Assembly: GCA_016926175.1 (NCBI GenBank)
Contig: JAFGPA010000012.1
Coordinates: 1 to 49,691, forward strand
Source: Microcaldota archaeon
GTDB taxonomy: Archaea; Micrarchaeota; Micrarchaeia; Anstonellales; Bilamarchaeaceae
Length of the DNA stretch: 49,691 bases
Reading direction: 5' to 3'
The notes below the pieces were generated by a model. It did not search any database. It had not been told where the DNA came from and worked only from the letters and a program-made list of their open reading frames with translations. The position numbers and the translations under genes are program-made. Below, in pieces: positions 45 through 17,889 of this stretch (its first letter is position 1; every line of letters starts with the position of its first letter).

Positions 45-687
45 ATGGGGTCTCTGTCCAAGATTATAAATGAAGAATTGGACAATGACCTTATGGGGGA
101 TGATGGAGTAAGTAACAAGAGGAATTTCAGGTAAACCAAGAAAAAGAATGCAGGTTTGTTTTTGTGGTAATTTAAAGTCTGAAACAAGATATAGGGAATA
201 TCTTCAAAAGCTGATAAAAAGTACTTTGAATGTTACTGGGTATTACCAAGAAAGGAAAAAGATCAACACTTACTACATAATCATAAACAGCGAAGGCATT
301 TTTGACTTATTTCATAGCAAATTCGATTTCCCCATAGGTTTCAAGAGTTTCTTTAATATTGAAAATTTCCCTAGATCGTGGAATCTCCAGAAACGCCTAA
401 TTAGAGGCATCTTTGACACAGATGGTTCGATTTTCTTTGATAAAGATCAGAGATATAAAAAACCGTATCCCATCTTAGACATAACTCTGAAAAACAAAGA
501 AGTATTGGATTGGATAGCTAAAATTTTACGCGGGCATAATTTCAAAGTAATAAGATATGGCAGGCATGTAAGATTAAAAGGAAGAGAAAACATTGGGAAT
601 TGGTTTAAAGAGATATCTCCTAAAAATGACTTACACGTAAGAAAGTATTCTAGATGGTTAATGGAATATTATGACAAGGGCCCGTAA
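45..687 (+). pseudogene. LAGLIDADG homing endonuclease, apparently frameshifted; the C-terminal two-thirds is the intact ORF 148-687
   Basis: ORF 148-687 contains LIRGIFDTDGSIFF (second LAGLIDADG motif). In another frame, ATG at 45 gives MGSLSKIINEELDNDLMGDDGVSNKRNFR*, resembling a degenerate first motif. The two parts join only by a frame change near nt 105-125. Confidence 0.65.
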
Positions 688-3137: not shown

Positions 3138-4079
3138 ATGAAGCTATCCTCTCATGCATCCCCCCTCGAAAAAAGTGGCACCAGAAAGAAGAAATTCAGT
3201 GGGTATGAATGTAAAATCGATGATAATTTAGTTGGAAAAAAAGTAAATGACAGGTATCAGTTGATAGAAAAAATTGGAGAGGGGGGCTGTGGTAATATTT
3301 ACTGTGGTTATGATGAGGAAAAAAAGGATTTTGTAGCAGTTAAAATTGATATTGATGGTAAAGATCTTGTTGCTGAAGAAGCTGCAATCCTGTCCACTTT
3401 CAGCAATGAGAACATCGTAAGATACCTGGACCATGGAACATTTCATGGTAAGGCATTTATGGTAACTGAACTGCTTGAAGGAGAAAGCCTTGCAGACGCA
3501 ATGATGAATGGAATAAGCTGGGAACAGCTAAAGCAGGCAATCTCACAGGTTTGCACTGCACTTAAGGCAGTGCATCAGGCTGAATATGTCCACAGGGACA
3601 TAAAGCCGGGAAACATATTCCTTGCAATTAAGGATGGCGTACAGGTCGCAAAACTGCTTGACTTTGGCATAGCAAGGAAGGTTGGGGTTGATGAAGGGCC
3701 CTTAAAGGGCACCCCAACTTATATTGCACCAGAGGTTGGCTCGCAACTGCATTATGATCAGAGGGCAGACATCTATGCTCTCGGATCCATAATGTACAGG
3801 GCCCTCTGCGGAACTGCACCTTTCATTGGAGAGTTCCTGGAGGTTCTGATCAGAAGCCTGAAGGAGGATCCCCTTCCTCCAAGCAAAAAAACTCCGGTAA
3901 GATCAATACCGCGTGAGATTGATGCGATTGTTCTTAAGGCAATGGCAAAAGAACCTGAAAACAGGTATCAGAATGTAGAAGAGCTTATGGCAGACCTAAT
4001 AAATTGTAAACACTCACCTAAGGAATTGGAACAACCGCCAATGGAAGCACCAACCAGGGCAGAAGCTGCTCATGGTTGA
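3138..4079 (+). CDS. Serine/threonine protein kinase, bacterial Pkn-like
   Basis: Glycine loop IGEGGCGNIYCG, VAVKIDI, YVHRDIKPGNIFL, KLLDFGIARK, GTPTYIAPE. Confidence 0.92.
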   Translation: MKLSSHASPLEKSGTRKKKFSGYECKIDDNLVGKKVNDRYQLIEKIGEGGCGNIYCGYDEEKKDFVAVKIDIDGKDLVAEEAAILSTFSNENIVRYLDHGTFHGKAFMVTELLEGESLADAMMNGISWEQLKQAISQVCTALKAVHQAEYVHRDIKPGNIFLAIKDGVQVAKLLDFGIARKVGVDEGPLKGTPTYIAPEVGSQLHYDQRADIYALGSIMYRALCGTAPFIGEFLEVLIRSLKEDPLPPSKKTPVRSIPREIDAIVLKAMAKEPENRYQNVEELMADLINCKHSPKELEQPPMEAPTRAEAAHG

Positions 4080-5239
4080 ATCCATTCTATTTCAAAATAT
4101 TCATAGTCGCTTCCAGGAAGATCGATTTTCTTGATTATGTAATGGGTAACGCTGCTTTCACGGTCACTGATTGCCATCATCATTTCCAGGCCAAAACATG
4201 AACACTCGGCCAGAGCCTGCGCCAGTTCATCGCCTCCTATATATTCATCCTCAGTAAGGGAATACATAAGATATTTGGGGGTTCCGTCTTTTGGAGTTTC
4301 AATGCCTCCCTTCTTTCTGTGATAGAGAAGAAAATCCAGCCTGGGTTTATCTGGATTGACTTTTACCTGGGTTTTCTTTCCGGGAATGGCAAGTATAAAT
4401 GTTTTTTTCACTGAATGGGCAACCCTTATTGCCCTGGACCATTCTGAGATGATCTGCTTGTGTTTTCTCGGGAAAACATGAATGACGTGCCTGGAATGCA
4501 TCCATTTGTCATCTGTTTTAAGCGGGGATGCCCCGGGGAAATAAAGCCGGAAATGGGTTCCAAACTTGAATCCGGTCTTTATTACATAGCCTCTTTTTCT
4601 CCAGTCTTCATAGACAGAGTAAAGGTCAGGGAAAAACATGATTCTTTTTTTTGCCAGTGCTTCGGCGTCTTTCAGTCTGGCATTGAGAAGATGAAGCTGG
4701 CCGTGGCGAAGAAGGTAGATGGTTTCAAAGATATCGAGCTTTCCTATCTTTCCCCTGTGGGATGCCTTGTATGTTCCGAACTGCCCTATCCAGTGCCGTT
4801 CATAGAGCTCCTTGGCAACTTTCTCATCATCTACAAGAGTGATAAGATCATAGGGAAAGAAAAGCCCGTCAAAGGAAAAGGAATCTACTTCAAAGCTGGA
4901 GCTTTCATATTTCAAAAGAATTGTCCTGCCATAATTTCCATCTGCCTCGTTTGTCGGCCTCAGAACCAGCCCTTTGTCCCTCCAGTCCTTGTAGGTAAGG
5001 TATTTTGCCAGCAGCTTCTTGTTTTTCAGGAACAGGGAGGCAACCTGGTTGAAAGTATAGTGGTTTCCCGATTTGTCAAAGCATCTGCCGTTCCTTATGT
5101 CCATTATATAGAGGGCTTCCTCTGGGGTGAGGGTAATTATTCCTTTGTTCATTGAACCGTAAAAACCGTTTTGCAGGGAAGAGACATCAGAAGGCTCTTT
5201 GACAAATATGGTTTTTCGGTCCAGCTCAAGTTTAATCAT
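4070..5239 (-). CDS. endA: tRNA-splicing endonuclease, apparent three-unit (epsilon-2-like) fusion
   Basis: 389 aa; catalytic-domain motifs VYEDWRKRGYVIKTGFKFGTHFRLYFPG, HSRHVIHV, AHSVKKTFILA (candidate triad Y233/H248/K279); additional N-terminal and C-terminal endonuclease-like units. Confidence 0.85.
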   Translation of the reverse strand: MIKLELDRKTIFVKEPSDVSSLQNGFYGSMNKGIITLTPEEALYIMDIRNGRCFDKSGNHYTFNQVASLFLKNKKLLAKYLTYKDWRDKGLVLRPTNEADGNYGRTILLKYESSSFEVDSFSFDGLFFPYDLITLVDDEKVAKELYERHWIGQFGTYKASHRGKIGKLDIFETIYLLRHGQLHLLNARLKDAEALAKKRIMFFPDLYSVYEDWRKRGYVIKTGFKFGTHFRLYFPGASPLKTDDKWMHSRHVIHVFPRKHKQIISEWSRAIRVAHSVKKTFILAIPGKKTQVKVNPDKPRLDFLLYHRKKGGIETPKDGTPKYLMYSLTEDEYIGGDELAQALAECSCFGLEMMMAISDRESSVTHYIIKKIDLPGSDYEYFEIEWIQP

Positions 5240-10605: not shown

Positions 10606-10897
10606 CGGGCCCGGGGGGAATTTCACAATTCTTAACGATCCTGATTTGAACCGTCTTTTTGATTTGAACCCCCGGCCTACAGCTGCCATCTGCTTCCGGC
10701 TTTCTGTTTCCTGCATCCCGAAGGAAGCCGGAGGGTCAAGGCCGGAAACATTAGAAGGCTGCCGCTCTATCCAAGTTGCTCCTGCAATTTAGCAGGCAGG
10801 TTTTGCCATGCTTCCCGATGGAAAGATATTTCTTTCCACGAGCGCGCCGAACAACGTCCGGTCGCGTTTACTAAAAAGCGGACTGAGCTACGGGCCC
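10606..10897 (-). tRNA. tRNA-Arg(TCT) with three introns: about 10774-10880 (D-loop, 107 nt), 10684-10750 (anticodon loop, 67 nt) and 10619-10661 (T-loop, 43 nt)
   Basis: Minus strand GGGCCCG-TA-GCTC-AGTC|...|TGGATA-GAGC-G-GCAGC-CTTCTAA|...|GCTGT-AGGCC-GGGGG-TTCAAAT|...|CCCCC-CGGGCCC-G. Spliced length is 75 nt with all stems paired. Confidence 0.85.
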
Positions 10898-17782: not shown

Positions 17783-17889
17783 TGGGGTTACAGGGATTCG
17801 AACCCCGATATGCAGGTTACGGCCTCACATTGCCACATAAGCGGCGGGATCTGGAGCCTGCCGTACTAACCTGGTTATACTATAACCCC
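17783..17889 (-). tRNA. tRNA-Trp(CCA) with a 33-nt anticodon-loop intron (about 17817-17849)
   Basis: Acceptor GGGGTTA/TAACCCC, anticodon stem GCAGG/CCTGC around CTCCAGA, T arm CGGGG-TTCGAAT-CCCTG. Confidence 0.9.

What the first reader, a model, noticed from the sequence alone, without database searches (positions are those of the whole stretch)
10606..10897. tRNA-Arg(TCT) gene interrupted by three introns, in the D-loop, anticodon loop and T-loop
Removing about 107, 67 and 43 nt restores a perfect 75-nt tRNA with discriminator G. Introns make up 217 of 292 bp. Three introns in one tRNA, two at non-canonical sites, are rare; they are mainly known from Thermoproteales and a few other archaea. 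Intron borders are uncertain by 1-2 nt, and standard tRNA finders may miss the gene.
Basis: partly seen in the sequence, partly recalled or inferred. Interest (0 to 1): 0.85.

Follow-up and report, generated by a model that had tools for sequence, protein, structure and literature searches.

The report
tRNA-Arg gene broken by three introns
In a tiny uncultured archaeon (Micrarchaeota), the one gene found for the tRNA that reads AGA codons is cut into four pieces by three introns, which the cell's own splicing enzyme, encoded about 5.4 kb away, most likely removes; in its close relatives such introns are copies of a repeated, mobile-looking DNA element.

Summary
Confirmed. Window 10897→10606 (minus strand) encodes a tRNA-Arg(UCU). 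Introns of 107, 67 and 43 nt lie at 15/16 (D-loop), 37/38 (anticodon loop) and 59/60 (T-loop). Removing them gives a perfect 75-nt tRNA. ARAGORN and Rfam miss the unspliced gene.

Orthologues in 18 other genomes encode nearly the same tRNA with 0, 1, 2 or 3 introns. Each intron's 3' tail complements the exon bases required for a bulge-helix-bulge: D and T introns fully, anticodon intron 3 of 4. In T introns this covaries (UUCA/UGAA in Arg, UGCG/CGCA in Ala). The window encodes an ε2 (ARMAN-2-type) splicing endonuclease with its catalytic and loop residues; RtcB is elsewhere in the genome. No second tRNA-Arg(UCU) was found, and AGA is common. So it is very probably functional: a new member of a known kind (multi-intron archaeal tRNA, already known in ARMAN-1/2 and Thermoproteales).

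The wider context is more novel. In this genus many tRNA introns are copies of one dispersed element with inverted-repeat ends, at D, anticodon and T sites of many tRNAs. The extreme genome yielded about 71 introns in 31 tRNA genes. The window's own three introns are not recognised copies; only its D intron shows a short relic.

The parts
10883..10897 (-). exon 1 of tRNA-Arg(UCU), positions 1-15 (GGGCCCGTAGCTCAG)
   Evidence: identical or near-identical in orthologues
10776..10882 (-). D-loop intron, 107 nt, between positions 15 and 16
   Evidence: its 14-mer CGCTTTTTAGTAAA also occurs in a congener's tRNA-Thr D-loop intron
10752..10775 (-). exon 2, positions 16-37 (CTTGGATAGAGCGGCAGCCTTCTA)
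10753..10755 (-). anticodon TCT (34-36)
   Evidence: ARAGORN on the spliced sequence
10685..10751 (-). anticodon-loop intron, 67 nt, between 37 and 38 (canonical site)
   Evidence: no second copy by BLASTN in the genus
10663..10684 (-). exon 3, positions 38-59 (AGCTGTAGGCCGGGGGTTCAAA)
10620..10662 (-). T-loop intron, 43 nt, between 59 and 60
   Evidence: bulge-helix part present in the minimum-energy fold
10606..10619 (-). exon 4, positions 60-73 (TCCCCCCGGGCCCG), discriminator G
10778..10781 (-). GAGC in the D-intron tail; pairs with GCUC 10-13 (window 10885-10888) as central BHB helix, 3-nt bulges AG^U and AA^C
   Evidence: 4/4; 9 of 11 D introns full, random offsets mean 0.2
10687..10690 (-). 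GAUG in the anticodon-intron tail; pairs with CUUC 32-35 (window 10754-10757) with one U-U mismatch (relaxed BHB)
   Evidence: 3/4
10622..10625 (-). UGAA in the T-intron tail; pairs with UUCA 54-57 (window 10665-10668), 3' bulge AU^U
   Evidence: 4/4; 9 of 11 T introns full, with covariation between Arg and Ala tRNAs
10642..10670 (-). direct repeat GGTTCAAATCA (10660-10670 across the exon 3/T-intron border, copied at 10642-10652 inside the intron)
4070..5239 (-). tRNA-splicing endonuclease EndA, three-unit ε2 (ARMAN-2) type, 389 aa
   Evidence: PF01974 and PF02778; PDB 4fz2 E=9.6e-125; Y157/K158, Y233, H248, K279, R272, W386 conserved

Best explanation
This is the organism's working tRNA-Arg(UCU) gene. 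It is transcribed as one precursor with three archaeal bulge-helix-bulge (BHB) introns. At each junction the last bases of the upstream exon (10-13, 32-35 or 54-57) pair with a four-base tail six to three nucleotides from the 3' end of the intron. This leaves short bulges that the homodimeric ε2 endonuclease cuts, and RtcB then joins the exons. The D intron takes GCUC 10-13 away from the true D stem, so the cloverleaf can settle fully only after splicing (inferred). The introns were gained piecemeal: orthologues carry 0, 1, 2 or 3 introns at overlapping sites around a nearly unchanged tRNA body. Shown: gene structure, borders, comparative series, BHB complementarity, enzyme genes. Inferred: transcription, splicing in the cell, order of splicing, origin of each intron.
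For: Spliced 75-nt tRNA recognised by ARAGORN. Orthologues with 0-3 introns and 63-75 of 75 matching positions; G009 has introns at the same three sites. Same-genus orthologues mostly share the upstream acidic reading frame. BHB complementarity is D 4/4, AC 3/4, T 4/4 in this gene; across relatives 9 of 11 D, 1 of 9 AC (28 of 36 pairs) and 9 of 11 T introns are full, against random-offset means of 0.20, 0.12 and 0.45 full matches. Compensatory change in T introns. ε2 EndA in the window with all key residues, residues as defined in PMC12397907. RtcB present. No other UCU tRNA found, while AGA makes up 158 of 8651 codons in 21 window ORFs.
Against: No RNA data. The anticodon intron has only 3 of 4 central pairs, and its minimum-energy fold uses a shifted pairing. 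The D-intron BHB structure is 4.6 kcal/mol above the minimum-energy fold. The assembly is 93% complete, so a second copy could be missing. tRNAscan-SE, the proper archaeal finder, could not be run.
Confidence: 0.93

Rival explanations
1. A decaying pseudogene: a former tRNA gene broken by insertions and no longer used.
For: Introns make up 217 of 292 bp; intron content changes quickly among relatives.
Against: Every exon position and stem is intact; the borders obey the BHB rule; no replacement UCU tRNA was found and AGA codons are common; orthologous genes in the genus are broken up in the same way.
Confidence: 0.04
2. Fewer BHB introns than three: one of the insertions is removed otherwise (self-splicing, or as part of trans-splicing or permutation) or the borders differ.
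For: The anticodon intron fits BHB less well (3/4); the borders allow a 1-nt shift with an identical product.
Against: No group I or II match in Rfam; all four exons lie in order on one strand within 292 bp; comparison with relatives fixes each border.
Confidence: 0.03
3. Assembly or binning artefact.
For: The genome is a 39-contig draft.
Against: Independent genomes of the genus show the same gene with introns at the same sites, e.g. G009.
Confidence: 0.01

Closest known systems
Multi-intron tRNA genes of Thermoproteales (Pyrobaculum calidifontis tRNA-Glu(UUC), P. islandicum tRNA-Pro(UGG); PMC4390854)
   Same: Up to three BHB introns per tRNA at canonical and non-canonical sites; similar introns shared between different tRNAs ('intron transposition', Fujishima 2010, as cited in PMC4090602 and PMC4033280).
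   Different: Here a Micrarchaeota lineage with ε2 rather than (αβ)2 endonuclease; in the genus many introns reduce to one element with inverted-repeat ends.
tRNAs and ε2 endonuclease of ARMAN-1/ARMAN-2 (Ca. Micrarchaeum acidiphilum; PMC4033280, PMC12397907)
   Same: Same endonuclease type, PDB 4fz2 (E=9.6e-125); multi-intron tRNAs already listed for ARMAN-1/2.
   Different: A different order (Anstonellales, by EndA similarity); the intron load per tRNA in some congeners looks very high.
Caldiarchaeum subterraneum tRNA-Thr(GGU) heterogeneity (PMC3293823)
   Same: Intron presence/absence at one tRNA locus within a close lineage, proposed to arise by mobile elements.
   Different: There a large integrating element and recombination; here short structured repeats in many tRNAs.
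Cyanidioschyzon merolae tRNA-Ile(UAU) (PMC9602550)
   Different: Eukaryotic nuclear gene; not related by descent.

Membership tests
Archaeal BHB-intron tRNA gene | Exons join into a complete cloverleaf tRNA | tested here: met
   75-nt tRNA-Arg(tct), all stems paired
Archaeal BHB-intron tRNA gene | Bulge-helix-bulge (or relaxed form) at each junction | tested here: met
   D 4/4, T 4/4; AC 3/4 (relaxed)
Archaeal BHB-intron tRNA gene | Cognate splicing endonuclease and ligase in the genome | tested here: met
   EndA in the window; RtcB
Archaeal BHB-intron tRNA gene | Spliced tRNA present in the cell | not testable with these tools
   no RNA data
ε2-type (ARMAN) EndA | Three-unit chain with ARMAN-specific loop Y160/K161 and catalytic Y236/H251/K282 | tested here: met
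   Y157/K158, Y233/H248/K279, also R272 and W386
Thermoproteales-type multi-intron tRNA | Lineage and (αβ)2 endonuclease | tested here: not met
   EndA is ε2; best relatives are Micrarchaeota records, among them LFW-283_2 (PMC8561730)
Group I/II self-splicing intron | Match to catalytic intron models | tested here: not met
   no Rfam intron hit on the window at gathering cut-off nor on the locus at E up to 10
   no hit in the three introns of this gene; other own-genome tRNAs do hold copies
   D intron shares CGCTTTTTAGTAAA with a congener's tRNA-Thr D intron (score 28, shuffle max 25)

The most novel reading that the evidence does not exclude
In this genus tRNA introns are generated by a dispersed, MITE-like DNA element with inverted-repeat ends that is itself removed as a BHB intron: an archaeal counterpart of eukaryotic 'introners'. 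Full copies carry both ends, shorter introns keep one end, and copies sit in the D, anticodon and T loops of many tRNAs, in 16S rRNA and at tRNA 3' ends. The three introns of this gene would be old or partly decayed products of such invasions; only the D intron shows a trace.
Probability: 0.5. Interest if true: 0.78.

Novelty: new member of a known kind. Interest (0 to 1): 0.55.

Why it matters
The locus gives a clean test case for how a tRNA gene survives repeated intron gain: the same tRNA with 0 to 3 introns in sister species, and the enzyme that must remove them encoded nearby. If the repeated element in the congeners is truly mobile, the long-open question of how archaeal tRNA introns arise (DNA transposition, reverse splicing, or relics of old gene halves) becomes directly testable. 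It also has a practical side: genomes of this genus look as if they lack most tRNAs (3 to 39 found by Rfam) when they probably do not.

Tried and rejected
2) First RNAalifold model R1 of the intron element had no pairs; replaced by R2 with a stated hairpin. 3) R2 on the window: the best hit scores only 13.8 bits and none falls in the introns of this gene, so I do not claim that they are copies. 4) BLASTN of the anticodon intron over the genus: only itself; its similarity to the own tRNA-His D-loop intron (36 vs shuffle max 23) is left as a hint. 5) An autonomous transposase next to element copies: two G057 loci showed tRNA 3'-flanking copies and no ORF that I recognised as a transposase; this was judged by eye on the ORF lists, without a family search. 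6) sigma-70 promoter/terminator scan: uninformative for archaea. 7) My first idea that most anticodon introns were the same element flipped was replaced by the inverted-repeat-ends reading after full-length copies were seen. 8) Group I/II intron, permuted and split tRNA: rejected, see rivals.

Full report
WHAT IS THERE. The minus strand at 10897→10606 reads GGGCCCGTAGCTCAG-[107]-CTTGGATAGAGCGGCAGCCTTCTA-[67]-AGCTGTAGGCCGGGGGTTCAAA-[43]-TCCCCCCGGGCCCG. Joined, this is a 75-nt tRNA-Arg with anticodon TCT, which ARAGORN accepts. In the unspliced window ARAGORN finds only a tRNA-Ser and Rfam only that and a second tRNA with an intron; nothing tRNA-like is found at this locus even at E up to 10.

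BORDERS. In the same-genus orthologues the nucleotide following G15, A37 or A59 varies, while CTTGG, A38 and U60 on the 3' side do not, and the intron-less gene in G003 reads straight through. This fixes the introns at 15/16 (window 10882-10776), 37/38 (10751-10685) and 59/60 (10662-10620).

NOT CHANCE. A spliced-alignment script scores 107.8 with the intron-less G003 tRNA-Arg(UCU) as template, against at most 27.6 for reversed templates over 20 G014 regions. In 18 other genomes the tRNA body matches the better of two Arg templates at 63-75 of 75 positions, while the introns go from none (G003, G036, G046, G050) to one (G010, G016, G013, G023, G035, G048), two (G012, G006, G014, G034, G030, G039) and three (G009 at the same sites; G008 with two in the D-loop). 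Most same-genus copies follow a conserved acidic reading frame, so they are the same locus.

HOW IT IS SPLICED. For each site I asked whether the four bases at -6 to -3 of the intron's 3' end complement the four exon bases that lie two nucleotides before the 5' cut. D introns: GCUC 10-13 with GAGC, full in 9 of 11 (this gene 4/4). T introns: 54-57, full in 9 of 11 (this gene 4/4), and the pair covaries: UUCA/UGAA in Arg, Lys and Glu, UGCG/CGCA or CGUA in Ala. Anticodon introns of Arg: 28 of 36 pairs, mostly 3/4 (this gene 3/4 with a U-U mismatch). Random offsets give means of 0.20, 0.45 and 0.12 full matches. The geometry (central four-base helix, bulges AG^U/AA^C for D and an AU^U 3' bulge for T) is the BHB motif; the anticodon intron is a relaxed form. 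The T-intron bulge-helix part is present in the minimum-energy fold; the D-intron BHB is 4.6 kcal/mol above the minimum. Introns were cut by hand from the sequences.

THE ENZYMES. Window ORF 4070-5239 is EndA of the three-unit ε2 type: best PDB match 4fz2 (E=9.6e-125), with the ARMAN-specific-loop Tyr/Lys, the catalytic Tyr/His/Lys and the bulge-binding Arg/Trp in place (roles from PMC12397907). This enzyme class cuts non-canonical introns (PMC4033280). A second PF01974 gene lies on contig C2, and RtcB ligase is present.

IS IT THE ONLY COPY? Of the 19 tRNA hits in the 93%-complete genome, ARAGORN names ten, none with TCT. The exon-2 pattern occurs once. The 5'-exon pattern finds four genes, read as Ala(GGC), Ile(GAT), Arg(TCG) and this one. 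AGA is 158 of 8651 codons in 21 window ORFs. A pseudogene is therefore unlikely.

WHO. EndA is 76-82% identical to five records that include LFW-283_2, the type genome of Ca. Bilamarchaeum dharawalense (PMC8561730), so the source is a Bilamarchaeum-like Micrarchaeote (order Anstonellales). This is an inference from one protein.

WIDER CONTEXT. Many introns of the genus share a core, CNNCTTTTNGGNAAAAGNNG followed by CCAAAAC, read forward or as the reverse complement; members score 30-103 against shuffled maxima of 23-36. A model of it (R2) hits 105 times in G014, 48 in G010 and 8 in the own genome, but only twice, weakly, in G003 and twice in G007. The count runs against the number of Rfam-visible tRNAs (G014 3, G003 39; Spearman -0.60 over 16 genomes at least 80% complete, p=0.014). 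In G014, spliced alignment recovered 31 tRNA genes with about 71 introns, only one gene intact, and at least 65 of the 105 hits lie inside them. Those regions were chosen for holding R2 hits, so intact genes are under-sampled, and some small neighbouring introns in the count are probably alignment artefacts. For comparison, P. calidifontis has 71 introns in 46 tRNA genes (PMC8450103). Full-length introns carry the core at the left end and its reverse complement at the right: neighbouring hits within 220 nt are +- 28, ++ 6, -- 5, -+ 9. Copies also lie in a 16S rRNA gene (L258), in an sRNA-like stretch and directly at tRNA 3' ends in a distant relative. Outside the genus, many copies are found only in one other genus of the family (G017, G029) and in G057. 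This looks like a mobile, introner-like element, but transposition itself was not shown and no transposase was found.

WHERE THE WINDOW'S GENE STANDS. Its introns are not recognised by R2. The D intron shares an exact 14-mer with a congener's tRNA-Thr D-loop intron, and the anticodon intron resembles the own tRNA-His D-loop intron but has no BLASTN copy. The T intron contains an 11-nt direct copy of its own 5' border, which suggests local duplication. Their origins remain open.

VERDICT. A real, probably functional three-intron tRNA-Arg(UCU): a new member of a known kind. The more novel reading concerns the intron element of the genus, which the window's gene only touches.

Noticed in passing
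L003:747-910 (own genome, contig C6): A second three-intron tRNA in the same genome: tRNA-Met(CAT), with introns near the anticodon stem/loop, in the variable region and in the T-loop; spliced score 96.1 against a control of 19.7.
   Followed up: partly
L029 (G008), tRNA-Arg(UCU): Appears to carry two successive D-loop introns plus an anticodon intron.
   Followed up: partly
L258 (G014:C76:22000-23200): A copy of the intron element lies inside an archaeal 16S rRNA gene, probably as an rRNA intron.
   Followed up: partly
L235, L143 (G014:C83 near 4200): Two facing element copies inside a stretch with box C/D-like motifs (ATGATGA ... CTGA) and several related repeats; no Rfam match.
   Followed up: no
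L279, L282, L283 (G057): Near-identical element copies sit directly at the 3' end of different tRNA genes in a distant relative, as if inserted there or processed there.
   Followed up: partly
window 17783-17889 (minus): tRNA with an anticodon-loop intron (anticodon read as CCA, Trp), seen by Rfam but not by ARAGORN.
   Followed up: no
L021 (G000:C2:956-1198): A second, short (160 aa frame) tRNA-splicing-endonuclease domain gene besides the ε2 enzyme.
   Followed up: no
window 148-687 (plus): LAGLIDADG-like ORF (PF14528, E=3e-5), possibly a homing endonuclease piece.
   Followed up: no
L066, L109, L111 (congeners): Copies of tRNA 3' ends followed by long hairpins just downstream of tRNA genes, another tRNA-associated repeat.
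   Followed up: no
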